DNA of 60,251 nucleotides from Hyphococcus sp. (lineage in GTDB: Bacteria; Pseudomonadota; Alphaproteobacteria; Caulobacterales; Parvularculaceae): positions 138,547 to 198,797 of the forward strand of contig JANQON010000004.1 of NCBI GenBank assembly GCA_028289605.1, given 5' to 3'. Under the pieces are notes generated by a model. It saw only the letters and a program-made list of their open reading frames with translations, did not search any database and was not told the DNA's origin. This document shows, piece after piece, positions 50,252 to 59,871 of this stretch. The position numbers and the translations under genes were made by a program. Every line of letters starts with the position of its first letter. Position 1 is the first letter of the stretch.

Positions 50252-50764
50252 TTAGGCCGCTTCCCGGTTTTCAAGCGTTTCAAGAATGCCGGCGATATTG
50301 GACGCAGGCGCGCCGATGGCTCCTGCGATATTCGACGCCGGCGACATGATGGTCTGGACAATGGAAGCCAGGAGCTCCTCGCGGGACGGCATTGAAGCGA
50401 GCGCCTCTACGCCTTTTTCGTCGAGGATTTCCTCACCCATCGCGCCGCCGAGGATTTTGAGTTTGTCGTTCTCTTTGGCGTATTTCTTGACGGCTTTCGC
50501 CGCCGCGACGGGATCTTCGGAAAATGCAATCGCGGTCGGGCCTTCGAAGAGATGCGAGATCTGCTCGGAGGGCTTTCCGGCGATGGCGATTTTGGCGAGC
50601 CTGTTCTTGATCACCCTCATCGACGCGCCTGCGTTGCGAAGCTCGCCGCGCAGCGTTTCGAAGTCGGAAACCGTCAGACCGCCATTGGCGACCACGACGA
50701 CGGCGTTCTTATCGAACACCCCGCCGATCCATTCGACCATGTCCGCCTTTTGGGCTCTGTCCAT
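50252..50764 (-). CDS. rplJ: 50S ribosomal protein L10
   Basis: Stalk base that binds L7/L12 dimers; in many bacteria the L10-L12 complex represses its own operon through the leader m[23 protein letters not shown] and the C-terminal helix [20 protein letters not shown] followed by [11 protein letters not shown] are conserved. 170 residues. Unusually, rplA is not directly upstream but 8.4 kb away. Confidence 0.97.
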
Positions 50765-50845
50765 AGGACTTTTCCCTTCGGTTCAGGTGCAAAGCGAAAC
50801 CACTCCGCTCTGCGGTTACGGTCGGTTGCGAGATGTGTGGAAACC

Positions 50846-50874
50846 AAAAAGGCTTCCGCATTCCCGCGAAAGCC
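50846..50874 (-). terminator. Attenuator-like terminator in the rplJ leader
   Basis: On the minus strand GGCTTTCGC pairs with GCGGAAGCC (nine pairs, one G-U) across a six-base loop and is followed by TTTTT. It lies about 82 bases upstream of the rplJ start codon, inside the leader, where it could prematurely end transcription. It may be part of an L10-responsive leader, but no anti-terminator was defined. Confidence 0.6.
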
Positions 50875-51008
50875 TGCCCCAGAAGGTCATGCGGCCCAGA
50901 TCGGCTGCGATGCCGACTGATCCTTTGCCTCCCGTCTATGCAGGATATTAAGTAGGAACCCTACCCCTGCAGTCTCGGACAGGTGCCGCCCCGAGAGGCG
51001 ACGGGCGG

Positions 51009-51036
51009 CTTTTACCGGGGAAAATCGAGAATGCAA
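51009..51036 (-). promoter_or_regulatory. Candidate promoter for rplJL-rpoBC
   Basis: TTGCAT (51036-51031) and TAAAAG (51014-51009) on the minus strand with a 16-bp spacer. It would give a leader of roughly 235 nt before rplJ. The match is moderate. Confidence 0.35.
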
Positions 51037-51157
51037 GGCTCTGCGTTCGATTTTTTCTATCGCTGTGATGTGAAACCGGCGGCCCTTGCGTCGGGGCCCG
51101 CGCTCTCCACCTCACGCGTCGCGTTATCAAACGCTTAACCTCATAGGAGAAATTTCC

Positions 51158-51904
51158 ATGTCACGCTTCCAAGGCAATTCCGTCCTGATCACGGGAGGCA
51201 CATCCGGCATCGGCCGGGCGACTGCAGAGCGGCTCATCCAAGAGGGCGCCCGCGTCGCCGTTACCGGGTCCAACGCTGACCGTCTCGACGACTTCAAAAG
51301 CCAACATCCCGGCGCGGTCACGATCCTCGCCGACAACGCCGATCCCATTTCCGCCGAAAACATTGCGAAATCAGTGAAAGAAGAGTTCGGCGCGGTCGAC
51401 GCCGTGTTCCTGAACGCCGGCTTTGGACGGTTCTCACCCATAGAACAGGTAACGGCGGAAGACTTCGACGAGCAATACGCCGTCAATGTTCGCGGACCGC
51501 TGCTCCAGGCGCGTGCTTTGTCGCCGCTTCTGAAAGACAACGCCAAAGTCGTCTTTACGACATCCGTCGCGCAAAATCTCGGGATGCCAGGGGGGGCGAT
51601 TTACAATTCCACCAAAGGCGCGCTGCGCACCGTTGTCCGTATCCTCGCCCGCGAATGGGCGGAGCGAAACATAAGCGTAAATGCAGTCAGCCCCGGCCCC
51701 ATCGGCTCCAGCTTTTTTGAACGCACCGGTCTGGACAGCGAACAAATCGAAGCCTTCGGCAAACAGATTATGGCGCAAGTCCCGCTCGGCCGGTTCGGCA
51801 AACCGGAAGAGGTCGCCGCCGTCGCCGCGTTCCTGCTTTCTGACGACGCAAGCTACGTCACCGGCTCTGAGTATGTCGTCGACGGCGGCATGAGCGAACT
51901 CTAG
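51158..51904 (+). CDS. Short-chain dehydrogenase/reductase (classical SDR)
   Basis: NAD(P)-dependent oxidoreductase of 248 residues. The coenzyme motif TGGTSGIG is at 12-19, NAG in FLNAGFG follows, and the catalytic S136, Y149 and K153 are in TTSVAQN and YNSTK. PLGRFGKPEEVAAVAAFLLS and the C-terminal GSEYVVDGGMSEL are typical. The substrate is not predictable. ATG at 51158 has AGGAGA seven bases upstream; the longer open frame upstream is not used. A strong terminator follows, so it is a single-gene unit. Confidence 0.93.
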   Translation: MSRFQGNSVLITGGTSGIGRATAERLIQEGARVAVTGSNADRLDDFKSQHPGAVTILADNADPISAENIAKSVKEEFGAVDAVFLNAGFGRFSPIEQVTAEDFDEQYAVNVRGPLLQARALSPLLKDNAKVVFTTSVAQNLGMPGGAIYNSTKGALRTVVRILAREWAERNISVNAVSPGPIGSSFFERTGLDSEQIEAFGKQIMAQVPLGRFGKPEEVAAVAAFLLSDDASYVTGSEYVVDGGMSEL

Positions 51905-51918
51905 GGCCTCTCCCTTTC

Positions 51919-51954
51919 AAAACGCGTCCCCATAAGCATGGGGACGCGTTTTTT
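51919..51954 (+). terminator. Strong Rho-independent terminator after the SDR gene
   Basis: ACGCGTCCCCAT and ATGGGGACGCGT form a perfect 12-bp stem with loop AAGC, extendable by A-T pairs, followed by a T-run (51949-51954). It lies 17 bases after the SDR stop and separates it from iorA. Confidence 0.92.
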
Positions 51955-52079
51955 GTGTCAGGCTTTTTTCGGCTCGCGCGCATTTCGCCTCGACGCCATA
52001 ACGTTGTATAGGTCATGGAGTCTTTGCGTTTCTGGACAGTTTCGATTGCCCTTGCGCCGCCTGACGAGAGGAAAACTCC

Positions 52080-52544
52080 ATGGCCGAATTCACTATAAAC
52101 GGTGAAAAACACACGATTGACGACGACTCCACCATGCCGCTCTTGTGGTATCTGCGCGACATCGCCGGACTGAAGGGCACGAAATTCGGCTGCGGCGTCG
52201 CCCAGTGCGGCGCCTGCACCGTGCATCTCAACGGGGTCGCCGTTCGGTCCTGCGTAACCCCGGCGACAGCCGCCGACGGTCAGGAAGTCACGACCATCGA
52301 GGGTCTCAGCGAAAACGGCGACCACCCCGTCCAGGCCGCCTGGCGCGATCTCAACGTCCCCCAATGCGGATACTGCCAGACGGGCCAGATGATGCAGGCA
52401 GCCTCGCTCTTAAACGCCAACCCCTCCCCGTCCGATGAGGATATTGACCAGACCATGCAGGGAAACATTTGCCGCTGCGGAACCTATCCGCGCATCCGCG
52501 CCGCGATTAAGACCGCCGCCAAATCTGCGGGAGGCGGATCATGA
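52080..52544 (+). CDS. iorA: Isoquinoline 1-oxidoreductase-type [2Fe-2S] subunit
   Basis: Small electron-transfer subunit of a xanthine-dehydrogenase-family hydroxylase, 154 residues. The plant-type cluster ligands are C38, C43, C46 ([15 protein letters not shown]) and C58. The second cluster ligands are C96, C99, C131 and C133 ([12 protein letters not shown] and [10 protein letters not shown]). The stop overlaps the iorB start by four bases. An upstream AGAGGA is present. The true substrate is unknown; N-heterocycles and aldehydes are typical of the family. Confidence 0.93.
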
Positions 52545-54856
52545 TCGATAAGATCCAGAACATATCGCGCCGTTCCGTTCTGCGCGCCGGCGCCGGAACC
52601 GGCGTTTTCATGCTGGCGACGACTCTGCCCGGCTGCGGCAGCCCGCAGGACGACCTTGCCGGCGCACAGACGCCGCTCAGCACCGAGCTGGAACCGTTAA
52701 ACCTTTTCGTGTCGATCAGTGAAGACGGCACCGTTCAGGTGTTGTGCCACCGGGCTGAAATGGGTCAGCAGGCGCGCACCGGCATGGCGCGTGTGATCGC
52801 CGACGAACTGGAAGCCGACTGGGACCGGATCAGCGTCCTGCAGGCGGAGGGCGAAGCCAAATACGGTGATCAGAATACGGACGGTTCAACCACCATCAGG
52901 GCCGATTTCATGCGATTGCGCCGCATCGGCGCCAGCGCGCGCTCAATGCTTGAACGCGCAGCCGCGGAGCAGTGGGGCGTTCCAGTCGAAGAGTGCAAGG
53001 CTGTATTGCATGAAGTTGTCCATGAAGCGTCAGGCCAACGCGCAGGCTATGGCGCACTTGCAGCCGCAGCCGCTGCTTTGGAGCCGCCGGCCTATGAGGG
53101 CGACGGCTTCGACCCAACGGCCGCGACATACACGCTGAAGAAGCCCTCCGAATGGCGTTACATCGGCAAGTCGGCGGCGGCGGTTGATCTTGACGACATG
53201 CTTGTCGGCAAAGCCGTGTACGGCCAGGACCTCACCCTGCCCGGCATGAAGATCGCCGTCATCGCTCGGGCGCCGGTGCTTTACGGAAAAGTCAAATCTT
53301 TCGACGCCAGCGCAGCCGAACAAGAACCCGGCGTCAGCCATGTTCTCGAGCTGCCGGCGGGCGATCGGCCTGCGCCTGGCAATCAAGGCGGCTTTAACCC
53401 TCTCGGCGGCGTTGCTGTCGTCGCCGATAATACGTGGGCCGCCATTCAGGGCCGGAACGCGCTTGAAATCGAATGGGAAGACGGCGCCAATGCGGACTAT
53501 GATTCAGCGGCCTATCGCGCCGAGTTGGAAGCGTCCGTGAAAGAGCCGCAACGGGTCGTACGCGAAAAGGGAGACGTTGAGGCGGCCTTCGCCGGCGCGT
53601 CGAACGTCGTCACCGCCGACTATTACGTTCCCCATCTCGCCCACGCGCAAATGGAGCCGCCGGCGGCGCTCGCCGAGTTTAAGGACGGCAAAGTCGAGGT
53701 GTGGACGTCGACGCAAAATCCGCAACAGGCTCGCCTCGACCTCGCCGAAATACTCGGCGTCGGATACGAGAATGTCCGCGTCAACAACGCTCTTCTCGGC
53801 GGCGCATTCGGCCGCAAGTCAAAACCGGACTTTGTCTATGAAGCCGCGCTGCTGTCGCGCCAGCTCGGCGTACCCGTCAAGGTGATTTGGACGCGGGAAG
53901 ACGACATTCATCATGACTACCTGCACTCGGTCAGCGCCCAACGGGTCGAGGGCGCCCTTGACGAAAACGGCGCCCTGACCGCGTGGCGCCACCGCGTCAC
54001 GTTCCCGTCGATCGGGACGACATTCAATCCGGCGGCGGAATATGGCAGCGACGGCGAACTGAGTTTGGGCTTTACGGACAATCCGTTCGCGGTTCCCAAC
54101 ATGCGCCTCGAAAACGGAAAGGCGAAAGGCAAAATCCGCATCGGCTGGCTGCGTTCGGTGAATAACATTCAGCACGCCTTCGCCGTTCAGTCCTTCGCCG
54201 CGGAACTGGCGCACGCCGCCGGGCGCGATCCGAAAGACTACCTCCTCGAACTTATCGGCGAGGATCGGATCATTAATCTCGATGAAGAAGGGCTTCAGGT
54301 GGAATACGGTAACTACAATCAACCGTATGAAGACTATCCGATCGATACAGCGCGGCTGAAAAATGTCATCAACGTAGCCGCGGACGCGATTGGATGGCGC
54401 ACCGACCTGCCGCAAGGCCGCGGTATGGGCATCGCCGGTCATCGCAGCTTTCTGAGCTACGTGGCGACAGCTGTCGAAGTCTCCGTCAGTGAAGACGGCG
54501 CCCTTGAGATTCCGCGCATGCACGTCGCCTGCGACTGCGGCGTCGCCGTCAACCCTGAGTCGGTGCGCGCACAGATGGAAGGCGGTTCAATTTTCGCGCT
54601 GTCTTGTATTCTGTCGAGCGCGATTACGGTCGCCGCCGGCCGGGTCGAACAGAATAATTTCTACGACTACGAGATGGCGCGGATCCATCAGGCGCCGAGA
54701 GAGATCGACATCACGCTCGTTGAAAGCGACGCCGCTCCCGGCGGGGTCGGCGAACCGGGTACGCCGCCCTTCGCCCCCGCTCTGGTCAACGCAATATTCG
54801 CGGCCACAGGAAAACGCATCCGGGAGCTGCCCCTTGGGGACCAACTAAGAGCCTAA
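52541..54856 (+). CDS. iorB: Isoquinoline 1-oxidoreductase-type molybdopterin subunit, Tat-exported
   Basis: Large catalytic subunit, 771 residues, of the aldehyde oxidase/xanthine dehydrogenase family. The twin-arginine motif SRRSVLRAG at 9-17 is followed by a hydrophobic stretch and LPGC, with C32 in a lipobox-like setting, so it may be a periplasmic lipoprotein. [17 protein letters not shown] and the active-site glutamate E738 in [18 protein letters not shown] are seen. The [2Fe-2S] partner is encoded with a 4-base overlap and has no signal, as expected for co-export. No flavin subunit, cytochrome or XdhC-type maturation gene is adjacent. Confidence 0.93.
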
Positions 54857-55215
54857 AGCGAGCCAACGCCGGCGGCGCGGCTTCGCCGACTCGTCTTGAA
54901 GGCTTCGCGCGCCGATTCGACGCATTAAGAGCGATCGTTCGCCCATCGGCGCCTTGCAGGTTCGGCGCGCAAAGTGCGCCCATATGGCCAAAATCGGTTC
55001 CGTTTTCGCCGGGATCGCGCACCATTATGGTTACGACTCCCAAAATGGGAACAAGACCGCGGTTTTTTACCGGCACGCTATTGGCAAGTGATCCACTAAC
55101 ACCATATTTCGGCGGAATTATTCTGTCCGGGACTATCGCCAAACACGTTTAGAGTGGTAATCAATACCGCGAAATCGGACGTCAATCAGCAAGTTTGCGT
55201 TTGGGGGAGACGCTG
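54857..55215. other. Intergenic region before the carbamoyltransferase cassette
   Basis: 359 bp with no convincing gene. A small hairpin GGCGCGC-AAA-GTGCGCC (54964-54980) lacks a T-run but could end iorB transcription with Rho. TTGGCA (55081-55086) with an AT-rich CATATTTC about 16-17 bp downstream is a weak candidate promoter for the cassette. The rightmost 100 bases are noticeably more AT-rich than the flanking genes. Confidence 0.4.
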
Positions 55216-56583
55216 ATGATCACGGCAAAGCCCTTTCGAAAAGAGAGGCTTTTGGGAACGCTGCTCTGTGCGGTTCCGGCAATTTATTGCTTTTCTATAG
55301 CCGCTTACGCGGTCTGGCAGTTTGACGATTTTGCCGGCTCCTTGGTCTATTTCACACGCTATGTGGCCGCCCCGGCGCTCATCGGCGGCGCCCTCGTCTG
55401 GATGATTTTCGCAGGCAAAGCACAAACGAGGACCATTGTCGGCGTGAACGCCATGGCCATCCTCGCAGCGCTGTTCGCCCATGAAGCGTACGCGACCTCA
55501 TCAATCGCGAAAGCCTTGAAACAATCCATCGCATCGGTTCAGGCCGACACGTCCCAGAGTTCGGCGTCGGTTCGGTCCCTGCCGCCCGGCGCAACGCTGA
55601 GGCGCCTCAATTATCAGGCGGGATTAACGACCTCACTTGAAGAAGCTGTTCTGGGCGGTCCGCCTCACCGCGACGTATTGATGTGCTTTCATCCGACCAA
55701 AGGGCCGGTGCGCTATAGATCCGACCGATACGGCTTCAACAATCCGGACACGATTTACGATGCGGACGCCATCGACGTGGCCCTGTTTGGAGACTCCTTT
55801 ACGGAAGGCATATGCCTGGAGCCCGGCGACGACGTCGCCGGACAGGTTCGATCGGCTGGCTTCAATGCGGCGAATTTTGGAATTCGCGGCAACGGACCGC
55901 TGTTCGAACTCGCCGCGATGGGACGCTACGGCCGCGCGTTCAAACCGAAGACGGTTGTTGTTCTCTACTACGCCGGGAACGACGGATCGAATCTGGAGCA
56001 AGAGGCCAGCGAAGCGTGGCTCATGGCGGGACTTGAAGATGACGCTGACTATGGCTCTCCGGCTTGGTCCGAAGCGCAGAAAGCCAGTGTGGACAGTGCG
56101 ATTCCCGTCCTCGCGAATACGAGCGGAGCGGCCTCATCGCAAAGCTATCGAAGGCGGTTGATGCGCAACTTCGTGGCGTTGGCGCAAACGTGGTCGGTCC
56201 TGGGCCTCCACTACCCGAGCCTGCCGAAACACCAGCCCATTTTTCTCGACGTTATCTCGAAGATGGAATCTCTGGCCAAAGAGTGGGACGGTGATTTTAT
56301 CCTGGTCTATATCCCTCGGGCGGAACGGTTCCGCGGCGCATTGCCCAATGATTTTGTTTTTGACGCAGACAGACGGTTAGTCATTGAAGCCGCAAAGCAA
56401 GCAAACATCTCCCTCATCGACCTGGCGGAGGAATTCGGCAAAACAGGAGACCCCTACGCGAATTTCGGCCCTGACGGGCATTTCAGCGAAGAGGGCGCAA
56501 AACTTGCAGCAAGCCTGATTATCGAAGAAATCAAAGTTGCTCGCGGAGAGCAAATCGCGGCCTCCGCCGCCGTAAGCCGATAA
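55216..56583 (+). CDS. Membrane-anchored SGNH/GDSL hydrolase-like protein
   Basis: The ATG at 55216 has GGGGGAGA five bases upstream and is preferred to a TTG at 55195; the product has 455 residues. Three N-terminal membrane segments (about 12-34, 47-66, 72-88) precede a soluble SGNH domain. The nucleophile serine S194 is in ALFGDSFTEG, the next block is FGIRGNGPLFELAAMG, an asparagine block is YYAGNDGSN, and the catalytic Asp-His pair D420/H422 is in PDGHFSEEG. Related domains are O-acyl esterases or transferases acting on polysaccharides. First gene of a four-gene rightward operon ending in a carbamoyltransferase. Confidence 0.82.
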   Translation: MITAKPFRKERLLGTLLCAVPAIYCFSIAAYAVWQFDDFAGSLVYFTRYVAAPALIGGALVWMIFAGKAQTRTIVGVNAMAILAALFAHEAYATSSIAKALKQSIASVQADTSQSSASVRSLPPGATLRRLNYQAGLTTSLEEAVLGGPPHRDVLMCFHPTKGPVRYRSDRYGFNNPDTIYDADAIDVALFGDSFTEGICLEPGDDVAGQVRSAGFNAANFGIRGNGPLFELAAMGRYGRAFKPKTVVVLYYAGNDGSNLEQEASEAWLMAGLEDDADYGSPAWSEAQKASVDSAIPVLANTSGAASSQSYRRRLMRNFVALAQTWSVLGLHYPSLPKHQPIFLDVISKMESLAKEWDGDFILVYIPRAERFRGALPNDFVFDADRRLVIEAAKQANISLIDLAEEFGKTGDPYANFGPDGHFSEEGAKLAASLIIEEIKVARGEQIAASAAVSR

Positions 56584-56591
56584 GGAACCGC

Positions 56592-57044
56592 ATGGCGCGT
56601 AACAAGGCAAAATTCGCACCGCACGAGGCCGGCGCCACATCTGAGGCGCCGCCGGAGCCTTCCAATCGCTCCTTTGGACTGATTGTGGGCGGGATCGCGC
56701 TCGCCATCGGCGCGCTTCGTTTCTTTATTCTCGATCACAGCGGCCCCTTCACCATCGGTTTCCTGGCGATCGGCGGCGCCTTAATGCTGCTGGGCCTGAT
56801 TGCCCCGTCGCTTCTTTCCATACCCAACCGATTGTGGATGAAGCTTGGCGTGCTGCTTGGGATAATCGTTACACCGATCGTTCTCGGTCTCATCTTTCTG
56901 TCGACATTCGTTCCCATCGGTTTTTTGATGCGTTTGCGCGGCTACGATCCCATGCGGCGCGCAGAAAAAGATCCCGGCGAAAGCTATTGGATCGTACGGG
57001 ATCCGGCCGGACCCGATCCAAAGACAATGCCGAACCAGTTCTAA
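56592..57044 (+). CDS. SxtJ-like small membrane protein
   Basis: A 150-residue protein with a charged N-terminus and three hydrophobic segments (about 28-46, 52-72, 82-112), then a conserved cytoplasmic tail with PIGFLMRLRGYDPMRR and ESYWIVRDP. This pattern matches the SxtJ family, which I recall from saxitoxin clusters and from loci next to carbamoyltransferases; its function is unknown. The ATG has AAGGA five bases upstream and lies 8 bp after the SGNH gene. The next gene starts 13 bp downstream. Confidence 0.8.
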   Translation: MARNKAKFAPHEAGATSEAPPEPSNRSFGLIVGGIALAIGALRFFILDHSGPFTIGFLAIGGALMLLGLIAPSLLSIPNRLWMKLGVLLGIIVTPIVLGLIFLSTFVPIGFLMRLRGYDPMRRAEKDPGESYWIVRDPAGPDPKTMPNQF

Positions 57045-57057
57045 ACGGAAAACACAC

Positions 57058-57207
57058 ATGGACTTCATCGTAGAACTCTGGCGATTCATGCGAGCCCGCC
57101 GTAAGTTTTGGCTCCTCCCGGTCATATTCATGCTGACGATTTTCGGCGGCTTGCTTGTATTGGCCCAAGGCTCGCCAGTGGCCCCGTTTATTTACTCGCT
57201 GTTCTAG
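57058..57207 (+). CDS. DUF5989/SxtK-like membrane peptide (49 aa)
   Basis: Short gene easily missed because of its length. It encodes MDFIVELWRFMRARRKFWLL followed by PVIFMLTIFGGLLVLAQGSP and VAPFIYSLF: an amphipathic basic N-terminus, one membrane helix and the conserved QGSPVAPFIY end. This matches the DUF5989 family, found beside SxtJ-like and carbamoyltransferase genes. Role unknown; an anchor or assembly subunit for the carbamoyltransferase is my inference. It lies 13 bp after the SxtJ-like gene and 23 bp before the carbamoyltransferase gene. Confidence 0.85.
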   Translation: MDFIVELWRFMRARRKFWLLPVIFMLTIFGGLLVLAQGSPVAPFIYSLF

Positions 57208-57230
57208 TCGCTCCGGCCACCAGTTCCATC

Positions 57231-59069
57231 ATGCGCATTCTCGGCATTTCCGCTTTTTATCACGACAGCGCCGCCGCCCTCGTTGAGGACGGTAAGATTG
57301 TGGCCGCCGCCCAGGAGGAGCGTTTCACACGCGTTAAGCACGATCCGCGCTTTCCAAAAAACAGCATCGACTACTGCCTTCAGGAAGCGAACTGCGCTCT
57401 CGACAGCGTGGATTATGTCGCGTTCTACGAAAAGCCGCTTATCAAATTCGAACGGCTTCTGGAGACATACCTGGCAAACGCGCCGCGGGGCTTTCGGTCC
57501 TTCCAAATGGCGATTCCGGTTTGGGTGAAGGAAAAGCTCTTCCAGAAGACGGGCCTGAAAAAGTCTCTCAAAAGCTTAGAGGGCGGCGACAAATGGAACC
57601 AGAATATTCTGTTTACCGAGCATCATCAGTCGCATGCGGCGAGCGCATTCTTCGCATCTCCATTTGAGAGCGCCGCTGTCTTGACCATGGACGGGGTTGG
57701 CGAATGGTGCACAACCTCAATCGGTCGCGGCCAGGGCAACAGTCTTGAGATCGAACGCGAGCTGCATTTCCCTCACTCGCTCGGCCTGCTGTACTCCGCT
57801 TTCACATATTTTACCGGTTTCAAGGTCAATTCCGGCGAGTACAAGCTCATGGGTTTGGCGCCGTATGGCGAGCCTCGGTTCACTCAGGTGATTTTGGACA
57901 ATCTGATTGACCTTCGTGAAGACGGCTCATTCAGGCTCAACCAGAAGTTCTTCAATTACTGCACTGGTCTGACGATGACCAATGACGCCTTTGCATCGCT
58001 GTTTGAGGGCCCTCCGCGAAAAGCGGAAGATCGACTGACGCAACGGGAAATGGACATTGCGGCGTCGATCCAACAAGTCACGCAACAGGTCGTTCTCAGG
58101 CTGGCCCGGGAAGCGAGAAAAACAACGGGTGAAGAGAATCTCTGCCTGGCGGGCGGGGTCGCATTGAATTGCGTCGCCAATGGCGAACTTCTCCGCGAAG
58201 GCATTTTTGAAAACATCTGGGTGCAGCCGGCGGCCGGCGACGCCGGCGGCGCGCTTGGCGCCGCGCTGTCCACCTGGCATCAATTTCTCGATGAGCCCAG
58301 AACGCCGCTGGGCAATCATCAAGACAACATGCGGGGCGCATACCTCGGCCCGTCCTTTTCCCAATCCGATATCGAAGACCGACTGACCAAAGCCGGCGGC
58401 GTCTTTGAAAAGCACGCCGAGGACAGCGTGATCGCGATGACGGCCGATGCGCTGGCCGACGGAAAGGCGGTCGGGTGGATGCAAGGCCGCATGGAGTTTG
58501 GACCGAGGGCCCTCGGCGGTCGGTCGATCCTTGGCGACCCGAGATCGCCGACGATGCAGAAGCTTCTGAACCTGAAAGTGAAGTTTCGCGAGAGCTTTCG
58601 TCCTTTTGCGCCGTCAGTGCTGCGCGAAGACGTTGCAGAGTGGTTTGATATTGATACGGACAGCCCGTACATGTTGATGGTCGCCGGCGTAACAAAAGAC
58701 CGTCTGCGTACCATGACGGAGGAAGAAAACGCTCTCTTCGGCATCGAAAAGCTGAACGTGGCGCGTTCTGAAATCCCTGCGGTCACCCATGTGGACTACT
58801 CAGCACGGGTGCAGACGGTCCACCGCGAGACCAACCCCCGCTATCATGCCCTGATCTCTGAGTTCAAACAGCGCACCGGCTGTCCTGTGATCGTGAATAC
58901 GAGCTTCAATGTGCGCGGAGAGCCCATCGTCTGCTCACCCGAAGACGCCTTCCGGTGCTTCATGGGCACGGACCTGGATATGCTCGTCGTCGGCGACTGC
59001 GTGCTCAGGAAAGAAGATCAGGACCCGGCGCTGGCGCAGGATTACAAGGAAGCCTTCGAACTCGACTAG
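57231..59069 (+). CDS. Carbamoyltransferase, NodU/CmcH/SxtI family
   Basis: Transfers a carbamoyl group from carbamoyl phosphate (through carbamoyl-adenylate) to a hydroxyl of a sugar or small molecule. ATG at 57231 gives MRILGISAFYHDSAAALVED and 612 residues; a longer open frame upstream overlaps DUF5989. The Kae1-like half has EHHQSHAASAFF with metal ligands H131/H135, TMDGVGEW, GEYKLMGLAPYG and LAGGVALNCVANGEL. The C-terminal YrdC-like half has GRMEFGPRALGGRSILGDPR near 420 and NTSFNVRGEPIVCSPEDAFR. The acceptor is unknown. Last gene of the cassette; a bidirectional terminator follows. Confidence 0.94.
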   Translation: MRILGISAFYHDSAAALVEDGKIVAAAQEERFTRVKHDPRFPKNSIDYCLQEANCALDSVDYVAFYEKPLIKFERLLETYLANAPRGFRSFQMAIPVWVKEKLFQKTGLKKSLKSLEGGDKWNQNILFTEHHQSHAASAFFASPFESAAVLTMDGVGEWCTTSIGRGQGNSLEIERELHFPHSLGLLYSAFTYFTGFKVNSGEYKLMGLAPYGEPRFTQVILDNLIDLREDGSFRLNQKFFNYCTGLTMTNDAFASLFEGPPRKAEDRLTQREMDIAASIQQVTQQVVLRLAREARKTTGEENLCLAGGVALNCVANGELLREGIFENIWVQPAAGDAGGALGAALSTWHQFLDEPRTPLGNHQDNMRGAYLGPSFSQSDIEDRLTKAGGVFEKHAEDSVIAMTADALADGKAVGWMQGRMEFGPRALGGRSILGDPRSPTMQKLLNLKVKFRESFRPFAPSVLREDVAEWFDIDTDSPYMLMVAGVTKDRLRTMTEEENALFGIEKLNVARSEIPAVTHVDYSARVQTVHRETNPRYHALISEFKQRTGCPVIVNTSFNVRGEPIVCSPEDAFRCFMGTDLDMLVVGDCVLRKEDQDPALAQDYKEAFELD

Positions 59070-59116
59070 CAACTTTCGTCGTCAACGCCGGCTTTCGACA
59101 GAACACACCCTTTCAC

Positions 59117-59149
59117 AAAAAAACCCGGCTCCATGAAGAAGCCGGGTTT
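59117..59149. terminator. Terminator between carbamoyltransferase and rplA
   Basis: AAACCCGGCT (59121-59130) pairs with AGCCGGGTTT (59140-59149) across a nine-base loop. On the minus strand the stem runs into an uninterrupted T-run, so it is a strong terminator for rplK-rplA. On the plus strand TTTAATTTAG follows, giving weaker termination of the cassette. It shows that rplKA transcription stops here rather than continuing to rplJ. Confidence 0.82.
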
Positions 59150-59175
59150 AATTTAGTTCGCAAACGATCGGCGCG

Positions 59176-59871
59176 TTAGGCTGAGGCGGCGCCAGTATCG
59201 ATTTTCACCCCCGGCCCCATGGTCGAGGAAATCGCGATCTTCTTGATATAAGTGCCCTTGGCGCCGGACGGTTTGGCCTTGGCGACAGCGTCGATGAACG
59301 CCTGCACGTTCTCAGCGATCGCTTTCTCTTCAAAGCTCGCCTTGCCGACGCCGGCATGAACGACGCCGGCTTTTTCGGCCTTGAACTGCACCGCGCCGCC
59401 CTTGGCGTCCTTAATGGCTTTGGTGACGTCGGGCGTCACGGTGCCGACTTTCGGGTTCGGCATTAGGCCGCGCGGGCCAAGCACTTTGCCGAGCCGTCCG
59501 ACAACGGACATCATATCGGGCGTTGCAATCACACGATCGAAATCCATAAAGCCGCCCTGAATTTTTTCCATCAGGTCATCGGCGCCGACAATATCGGCCC
59601 CGGCGGCCTTGGCTTCATCCGCTTTGGCGTCCTTGGCGAATACGGCGACGCGGACGTCCCGGCCGGTGCCGTTCGGCAGCGAGACGACGCCCCGCACCTG
59701 TTGATCGGCGTGCCGCGTGTCGATGCCGAGATTCATGGAAATCTCGATCGTTTCATCGAACTTGGCTTTGGCGTTGGCTTTGACCGACTTCACCGCTTCT
59801 TCCACCGAATGAGACTTTCCGGCGTCGATTGCTTCGCGGGCTGCGCGAATTCGTTTTCCTGGTTTGGTCAT
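59176..59871 (-). CDS. rplA: 50S ribosomal protein L1
   Basis: L1-stalk protein; in E. coli it represses the L11 operon. [40 protein letters not shown] and [20 protein letters not shown] are conserved, ending [20 protein letters not shown]. 231 residues, standard. Starts 6 bp after rplK. In this genome the rplJL genes are not directly downstream. Confidence 0.97.

What the first reader, a model, noticed from the sequence alone, without database searches (positions are those of the whole stretch)
55216..59069. SGNH hydrolase / SxtJ / DUF5989 / carbamoyltransferase cassette
Four same-strand genes with gaps of 8, 13 and 23 bp form one unit. The last three correspond in type to sxtJ, sxtK and sxtI of saxitoxin clusters, yet no toxin-biosynthesis gene is here. 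SxtJ-like and DUF5989 proteins have no known function. A carbamoyltransferase accompanied by two tiny membrane proteins and a membrane-anchored SGNH protein suggests a membrane-bound O-carbamoylation complex acting on an envelope or lipid-linked glycan. Seen: gene order, spacing, motifs and membrane segments. Known: the SxtI family transfers carbamoyl groups. Inferred: complex formation and glycan target.
Basis: partly seen in the sequence, partly recalled or inferred. Interest (0 to 1): 0.78.

Follow-up and report, generated by a model that had tools for sequence, protein, structure and literature searches.

The report
Possible DltX-like carbamoyl shuttle cassette
A four-gene bacterial cassette, whose tiny membrane protein ends in the same tyrosine tag that other bacteria use to carry acyl groups to the cell surface, probably moves carbamoyl groups (the -CO-NH2 unit) through the membrane onto surface sugars, which would explain several widespread proteins of unknown function.

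Summary
In detail: SGNH protein, SxtJ, DUF5989 and carbamoyltransferase, same strand, gaps 8/13/23 bp. The unit is real: of 249 genomes of the phylum, 49 have DUF5989; 42 of these have SxtJ and 49 a carbamoyltransferase. Around DUF5989 in 80 named records, the carbamoyltransferase lies within 5 kb in 80, SxtJ in 76. SGNH genes lie within 300 bp of the block in 50 of 134 loci.

New: DUF5989 ends in FIY(T/S)LF, the FXYXXF acyl-shuttle hexapeptide that PMC12148441 describes for the microprotein DltX and MBOAT C-termini. The tyrosine is invariant in 126 of 126 distinct sequences; the motif ends 134 of 136 DUF5989 but 8 of 14,279 other ORFs. The SGNH profile's best solved match is AlgJ, from an MBOAT-SGNH system.

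Best reading: carbamoyltransferase plus SxtJ load carbamoyl on the DUF5989 tyrosine; the membrane-anchored SGNH protein passes it to an extracytoplasmic acceptor, probably a polysaccharide. Parts and motif are shown; carbamoyl-tyrosine, direction and acceptor are inferred. Sinorhizobium meliloti 1021 carries the cassette, so this is testable.

The parts
55216..56583 (+). SGNH (GDSL-type) protein, 455 aa: N-terminal membrane helices, then SGNH domain. Counterpart in type of sxtL; proposed extracytoplasmic carbamoyl transferase (DltD/PatB/AlgJ-like)
   Evidence: Pfam PF13472; AlphaFold mean pLDDT 90.8, helices 8-34, 43-66, 69-114 before the SGNH domain (the hydropathy scan found two segments); profile match to AlgJ, E 3.3e-7
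55789..55797 (+). codons of G192-D193-S194, catalytic serine block of the SGNH domain
   Evidence: invariant in 24 aligned SGNH proteins; codons read
56479..56481 (+). codon of H422, catalytic histidine
   Evidence: invariant in 24 aligned SGNH proteins; codon read
56592..57044 (+). SxtJ, 150 aa, three predicted membrane segments; proposed docking platform/conduit between carbamoyltransferase and DUF5989
   Evidence: PF19588; hydropathy; fused to the carbamoyltransferase C-terminus in L082 and L084
57058..57207 (+). DUF5989 (SxtK-like by type), 49 aa, single membrane segment; proposed DltX-like carbamoyl shuttle
   Evidence: PF19451; hydropathy; positively charged N-flank, uncharged C-tail across the family
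57187..57204 (+). codons of the C-terminal hexapeptide FIYSLF (FXYXXF acyl-shuttle motif); Tyr46 codon 57193-57195
   Evidence: motif definition from PMC12148441
57231..59069 (+). carbamoyltransferase (SxtI/NodU/TobZ type), 612 aa, no membrane segment predicted
   Evidence: PF02543 and PF16861; nearest solved sequences GdmN, decarbamoylnovobiocin carbamoyltransferase, 7xb6, TobZ; hydropathy

Best explanation
The cassette is a membrane-spanning carbamoyl relay. (1) The cytoplasmic carbamoyltransferase activates carbamoyl from carbamoyl phosphate and ATP (family knowledge, recalled). (2) SxtJ docks it at the membrane (inferred from two I-J fusions). (3) The carbamoyl group is put on the invariant tyrosine of the C-terminal FXYXXF hexapeptide of DUF5989, a single-pass microprotein that works like DltX (motif shown; carbamoyl-tyrosine inferred). 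(4) The membrane-anchored SGNH protein takes the group on its serine and passes it to a hydroxyl of an extracytoplasmic acceptor, most likely a surface polysaccharide or a lipid-linked glycan (inferred). Carbamoyltransferase plus SxtJ thus stand where an MBOAT protein stands in the D-alanylation and O-acetylation systems.
For: Unit: I, J and K within 5 kb on one strand in 42 of 54 phylum loci and 76 of 80 named loci, carbamoyltransferase in 50 of 54 and 80 of 80; genome-level co-occurrence. Motif: Tyr46 126/126, F44 122/126, F49 121/126 (otherwise Tyr), P43 126/126 distinct DUF5989, and all 136 proteins end three residues after that Tyr; [FY]xYxx[FY] C-terminal in 134/136 DUF5989 versus 8/14,279 other ORFs, among which are the only two genes that a phmmer search with the L094 MBOAT found (L094, L034) and the end of a third MBOAT, L176 (MBOAT by Pfam; tail of the third). 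Published motif: FXYXXF in DltX and PatA, whose tyrosine carries the acyl group to DltD/PatB (PMC12148441 passages); DltX FLYFGF (PMC11035591 passages). Topology: mean net charge +2.7 before and 0.06 after the DUF5989 helix. SGNH adjacency: 54 SGNH genes within 300 bp on 253 sides versus 11 on 233, 4 on 207 and 3 on 185 sides further out; found before J, after I, between J and K (L040), between K and I (L149), after K (L032, L034, L159); 53 of these 54 have a hydropathy segment, 48 within their first 60 residues. SGNH profile best against AlgJ. L173: an SGNH-carbamoyltransferase pair without recognised SxtJ/DUF5989 is followed after 22 bp by a 107-aa protein ending in SPFIYVMF. Glycan setting: Ensifer canadensis exopolysaccharide cluster, Paludisphaera exosortase/EPS locus, glycosyltransferases, LptF/LptG pairs and polysaccharide deacetylases beside other copies.
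Confidence: 0.55

Rival explanations
1. Cytoplasmic carbamoylation at the membrane: SxtJ and DUF5989 only anchor or regulate the carbamoyltransferase, which modifies a lipid-linked glycan precursor on the inner face; the SGNH protein does something else, such as O-acetylation or editing.
For: The nearest solved carbamoyltransferases, GdmN, the novobiocin enzyme and TobZ, carbamoylate soluble hydroxyl substrates directly (recalled); I-J fusions show anchoring; no SGNH gene was found within 300 bp in 84 of 134 loci.
Against: Does not explain why the DUF5989 C-terminus is an invariant acyl-shuttle motif ending exactly at the stop codon, nor why SGNH genes recur at the block in five different positions.
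Confidence: 0.25
2. The SGNH protein is a decarbamoylase that removes the group the carbamoyltransferase adds (the role proposed for SxtL).
For: SxtL is proposed to cleave the carbamoyl group (PMC2679770 and PMC3037375 passages); in Lyngbya wollei sxtL is absent where sxtI is truncated, which fits both readings. The predicted fold is that of SGNH esterases in general.
Against: 53 of the 54 SGNH proteins at the block have a hydropathy segment, 48 near the N-terminus, so transferase and hydrolase would probably sit on opposite sides of the membrane; a make-and-break pair in one operon would be futile; the profile's best solved match is AlgJ, an alginate acetylation protein.
Confidence: 0.1
3. 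A saxitoxin-type or other small-molecule pathway: the cassette tailors a secreted metabolite rather than a glycan.
For: sxtIJKL occur in saxitoxin clusters; a J/K-less relative, L172, lies beside oxygenase-like genes; the window genes scanned beside the cassette are not polysaccharide genes.
Against: PMC2684587 passages give sxtI, J, K and L homologues in other Oscillatoriales cyanobacteria (Lyngbya sp. and/or Trichodesmium); several annotated or scanned neighbourhoods hold glycan genes and others housekeeping genes.
Confidence: 0.1

Closest known systems
Dlt D-alanylation system (DltX microprotein, DltB MBOAT, DltD SGNH)
   Same: small single-pass protein ending in FXYXXF with an invariant tyrosine, encoded with an SGNH protein (motif and roles from PMC12148441 and PMC11035591 passages; DltX is 5.9 kDa, PMC3783018 passages)
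   Different: no MBOAT in the cassette; carbamoyltransferase plus SxtJ instead; no detectable sequence homology to DltX; presumed cargo carbamoyl, not D-alanyl
PatA/PatB and alginate (AlgI/AlgJ/AlgX) O-acetylation systems
   Same: SGNH transferase fed by a C-terminal tyrosine hexapeptide (PatA FIYANF; the authors extend the model to alginate); the window SGNH profile matches AlgJ best and AlgX fourth among solved sequences
   Different: there the hexapeptide is the tail of the MBOAT; here it is a separate protein and no MBOAT is in the cassette
sxtI-sxtJ-sxtK-sxtL of saxitoxin clusters
   Same: the same four gene types; order I-J-K-SGNH seen in L032, L034 and L159
   Different: the window order is SGNH-J-K-I; no other sxt-type gene among the window genes scanned; the saxitoxin proteins themselves were not compared
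O-carbamoyltransferases TobZ, GdmN, NovN
   Same: same two-domain enzyme family
   Different: these act without SxtJ/DUF5989 partners (recalled)

Membership tests
sxtIJKL-type carbamoylation cassette | carbamoyltransferase, SxtJ, SxtK-type microprotein and GDSL protein in one block | tested here: met
   for the window; gene types of sxtI-L from PMC2679770 passages
sxtIJKL-type carbamoylation cassette | SxtK itself belongs to DUF5989 and SxtL to the window's SGNH family | not tested
   saxitoxin-cluster proteins deliberately not fetched; only type, size and listing order compared
DltX-type acyl shuttle | small single-pass protein | tested here: met
   49 aa, one hydropathy segment 17-35
DltX-type acyl shuttle | C-terminal FXYXXF with invariant Tyr | tested here: met
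   motif from PMC12148441
DltX-type acyl shuttle | extracytoplasmic C-terminus | tested here: inconclusive
   charge distribution favours N-in/C-out; no experiment
DltX-type acyl shuttle | MBOAT partner | tested here: not met
   no MBOAT in the window cassette; MBOAT genes near the block only in L034 and L094 among the loci searched
DltX-type acyl shuttle | sequence homology to DltX | tested here: inconclusive
   no DltX family in Pfam up to E 10 for 23 DUF5989 and no DltX chain in the PDB profile search; no direct alignment with DltX was made, and a 49-residue protein may hide distant homology
DltX-type acyl shuttle | acyl-tyrosine intermediate | not testable with these tools
   needs mass spectrometry
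SGNH acyltransferases (AlgJ/AlgX/PatB/DltD) | SGNH fold with catalytic Ser and His | tested here: met
SGNH acyltransferases (AlgJ/AlgX/PatB/DltD) | membrane anchor with extracytoplasmic domain | tested here: inconclusive
   three helices before the domain, positive N-terminus; predicted only
SGNH acyltransferases (AlgJ/AlgX/PatB/DltD) | transferase rather than hydrolase activity | not testable with these tools
   local profile similarity to AlgJ only
O-carbamoyltransferase (PF02543 + PF16861) | both domains over the curated cut-off | tested here: met
   HDSAA and HHQSH segments read

The most novel reading that the evidence does not exclude
DUF5989/SxtK is a new, MBOAT-independent acyl-shuttle microprotein: a carbamoyltransferase-SxtJ assembly loads carbamoyl onto its C-terminal tyrosine, and an SGNH enzyme transfers it to surface glycans. 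The module is widespread, moves between lineages, and was recruited whole (sxtIJKL) for saxitoxin carbamoylation. Carbamoyl would join D-alanyl and acetyl as cargo of the tyrosine shuttle.
Probability: 0.5. Interest if true: 0.9.

Novelty: new variant of a known kind. Interest (0 to 1): 0.8.

Why it matters
It gives a concrete, testable function to protein families without one (DUF5989, SxtJ, and the SGNH proteins beside them). DUF5989 turned up in Alpha-, Beta- and Gammaproteobacteria, SAR11, Nitrospira, Acidobacteria, Planctomycetes and a cyanobacterium. It would show that the tyrosine acyl-shuttle principle works without an MBOAT channel and with carbamoyl as cargo, and would predict carbamoylated surface polysaccharides in organisms that include the model symbiont Sinorhizobium meliloti.

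Tried and rejected
Strict monophyly of cassette-linked carbamoyltransferases: on 69 sequences (quick tree) the label needs 5 changes (22 in shuffles), but one clade is rejected (p-AU 5e-5). At least one row is mislabelled by my distance rule (L164 second copy, which groups with NodU-type rows), and relatives without J/K (L172, L173, the degenerate L085 domain) lie inside; so one subfamily with exceptions, not a clean clade.

I-J interface from the AlphaFold model of the L082 fusion: the J part has block pLDDT 35-70; nothing concluded. Homology of DUF5989 to DltX by Pfam or PDB profile: none. The SGNH-carbamoyltransferase fusion L085 (1068 aa) looked like a Rosetta-stone case, but by eye its carbamoyltransferase domain lacks the HDSAA and HHQSH-type residues and no N-terminal anchor is predicted; not counted as evidence. 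A DltA/DltC-like pair beside the Methylosinus cassette: the AMP-binding enzyme is real, the 79-aa protein is not a carrier protein by Pfam. A motif-pattern search for SGNH genes was too crude and was replaced by sequence linkage; that set was seeded from cassette neighbours, which biases it towards near hits. Relatives of the L173 107-aa tail protein: none convincing in 299 and 61 genomes (one hit at E 8e-4 with a stop inside) or in IMG/VR. Rows dropped: 6 of the 60 stretches fetched (L085-L090, fetched for other reasons) are not in the 54; two DUF5989 matches below cut-off (G098, G124) were not fetched. Not everything was annotated: 68 of the 112 operon neighbours listed went to Pfam together.
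Full report
What is there. Pfam places each over its curated cut-off. On the left lie a molybdopterin oxidoreductase pair and a short-chain dehydrogenase; on the right, convergent, two genes that I read as rplA and rplK. In eight congeners I took the stretch beside rplA: none has a match to the window's dehydrogenase, oxidoreductase or cassette genes, and in the six where the next ribosomal protein gene (read as rplJ) was also in view the interval is 2.3 to 9.5 kb. DUF5989 is over cut-off in 2 of 60 relatives searched, the own genome included, and in none of 27 other members of the genus; SxtJ in 4 of 150 genomes of the order. Two family members, G280 and G380, carry the same four genes in the same order; carbamoyltransferase identity is 79% and 77%, SGNH only 45% and 44%. 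The cassette behaves as a patchily inherited unit whose SGNH member diverges fastest.

It is a unit. In 249 genomes of the phylum, DUF5989 is over cut-off in 49; 42 of these have SxtJ, and all 49 have a PF02543 match (both at E <= 0.001). Around DUF5989 in the stretches fetched (54 in the phylum set; 80 named records, the best of at least 513 found), I, J and K all lie within 5 kb on one strand in 42 of 54 and 76 of 80; the carbamoyltransferase does in 50 of 54 and 80 of 80. Some stretches end at contig ends; two places occur in both sets (L047/L112, L064/L120), neither with an SGNH gene at the block; the window itself is in the first set. The order is J-K-I (as in the window) or I-J-K (Nitrospira and others). 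In L082 and L084 the carbamoyltransferase and SxtJ are one 738-aa protein; the SxtJ part of L082 scores below its Pfam cut-off (16.5 of 24.4 bits), but both match my SxtJ profile (98 and 106 bits).

The SGNH partner. SGNH genes lie within 300 bp of the block in 17 of 54 and 33 of 80 loci, on the same strand in 15 and 25. Per side examined: 54 genes on 253 sides within 300 bp, 11 on 233 at 301-2000 bp, 4 on 207 at 2-4 kb, 3 on 185 at 4-6 kb (near versus next bin Fisher 2.5e-8). The search was seeded with SGNH proteins from cassettes, so the fall-off is partly built in, and one of the 50 loci (L102) is doubtful; independently, Lipase_GDSL_2 was the commonest Pfam family among 68 operon neighbours (11 of 68). 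The position varies: before J (window, L038, L094, L128), after I (L037, L043, L100), between J and K (L040), between K and I (L149), after K in I-J-K order (L032, L034, L159). That last order is the order in which PMC2679770 lists sxtI, sxtJ, sxtK, sxtL; [quoted passage not shown] PMC2684587 passages say that all four are shared with Oscillatoriales such as Lyngbya sp. and/or Trichodesmium; PMC3037375 passages say that Lyngbya wollei has a truncated sxtI and no sxtL.

The motif. In 126 distinct DUF5989 sequences, Tyr46 and Pro43 are invariant, Phe44 is present in 122, and position 49 is Phe in 121 and Tyr in 5; all 136 proteins end there. The C-terminal hexapeptide F-I-Y-T/S-L-F is exactly FXYXXF. 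PMC12148441 (abstract and passages) calls this hexapeptide the acyl-shuttle motif: in DltX, a membrane microprotein, its tyrosine takes D-alanine from the MBOAT DltB to the SGNH protein DltD; in the MBOAT PatA (FIYANF in one species) it takes acetyl to PatB. PMC11035591 (passages) gives DltX FLYFGF. [FY]xYxx[FY] at the C-terminus occurs in 134 of 136 DUF5989 and in 8 of 14,279 other ORFs of the same loci, non-coding ORFs included (the strict form in 127 of 136). Among the 8 are two MBOAT proteins (L034, L094) and the end of a third (L176; whole gene in L226), all MBOAT by Pfam (tail). A fourth is the 107-aa protein that directly follows an SGNH-carbamoyltransferase pair lacking recognised SxtJ and DUF5989 (L173). 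The other four look like chance. The 120 best database matches all carry the strict motif, but they are the highest-scoring ones. Of 15 further DUF5989 rows (L195 and L210 are one place), 13 carry a slightly wider pattern; two weak IMG/VR matches do not.

Setting. Ensifer canadensis pT173d carries SGNH-J-K-I inside an exopolysaccharide cluster (J is annotated only as hypothetical, my profile finds it); Paludisphaera PALBO1 carries I-J-K in an exosortase/EPS locus; Methylosinus pMSC49c carries SGNH-J-K-I. Elsewhere the neighbours include LptF/LptG pairs, glycosyltransferases, polysaccharide deacetylases and, twice, MBOAT genes. In the SAR11 loci scanned the block lies beside housekeeping-type genes. 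DUF5989 occurs in 46 of 72,556 plasmid records, 38 of them Sinorhizobium or Ensifer, S. meliloti 1021 pSymB included. In L220 (strain 1021) the order is a divergent SGNH gene, then J, K, I, and its DUF5989 ends in FIYTLF.

Mechanism proposed. Shown: gene unit, motif, predicted fold, neighbours. Inferred: carbamoyl is loaded on the DUF5989 tyrosine by the carbamoyltransferase held by SxtJ; the SGNH serine takes it over and transfers it outside. Aryl carbamates are known to carbamoylate serine hydrolases (recalled), which makes carbamoyl-tyrosine a plausible donor; carbamoyl-serine enzymes also turn over slowly (recalled), a point against. The L173 case suggests that carrier tail, carbamoyltransferase and SGNH may be the essential trio, but it is one case and looks soluble.

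In print. DUF5989 occurs in 0 papers of the library searched. Of 17 papers listed for at least two of DltX, SxtK, DUF5989, acyl shuttle, carbamoyltransferase and MBOAT, none has SxtK or DUF5989 together with DltX, MBOAT or acyl shuttle (by the occurrence columns). One paper holds both carbamoyltransferase and SGNH hydrolase (listing only). The library lacks most subscription journals; the paper I took to be the original saxitoxin-cluster report is not held.

Noticed in passing
window 50764-59176: The interval between the rplKA genes and the next ribosomal protein gene (rplJ by my reading) varies in this genus: 2.3 to 9.5 kb in the six congeners where both ends were in view, without matches to the window's genes; here 8.4 kb with an SDR gene, a molybdopterin oxidoreductase pair and the cassette. 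Its content elsewhere was not examined.
   Followed up: partly
L173:3868-7083: SGNH-carbamoyltransferase-107-aa operon without recognised SxtJ or DUF5989; the 107-aa protein has no membrane segment yet ends in SPFIYVMF. Possible soluble version of the shuttle.
   Followed up: partly
L085:8599-11805: 1068-aa protein with an SGNH domain fused to a degenerate-looking carbamoyltransferase domain, convergent to a carbamoyltransferase-SxtJ pair without DUF5989.
   Followed up: partly
L226:3457-8627: MBOAT with FIYFQF tail directly before a NodU-type carbamoyltransferase, in a row with glycosyltransferase genes.
   Followed up: no
L044, L057, L058, L065: A pair of LptF/LptG-family permease genes directly precedes SxtJ-DUF5989-carbamoyltransferase.
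   Followed up: no
Pelagibacteraceae loci among L100-L171: SAR11 genomes carry the three-gene block; in the loci scanned it lies beside genes such as pntB or a thymidylate synthase of the Thy1 family, and an SGNH gene is beside it in some and not in others.
   Followed up: no
L223:6594-9427: Planktothrix plasmid with sterol desaturase, SxtJ, DUF5989 and SGNH in a row but no carbamoyltransferase annotated in the stretch.
   Followed up: no
L221:6763-8095: In S. meliloti Ak57 the SGNH gene reads as two ORFs where strain 1021 has one.
   Followed up: no
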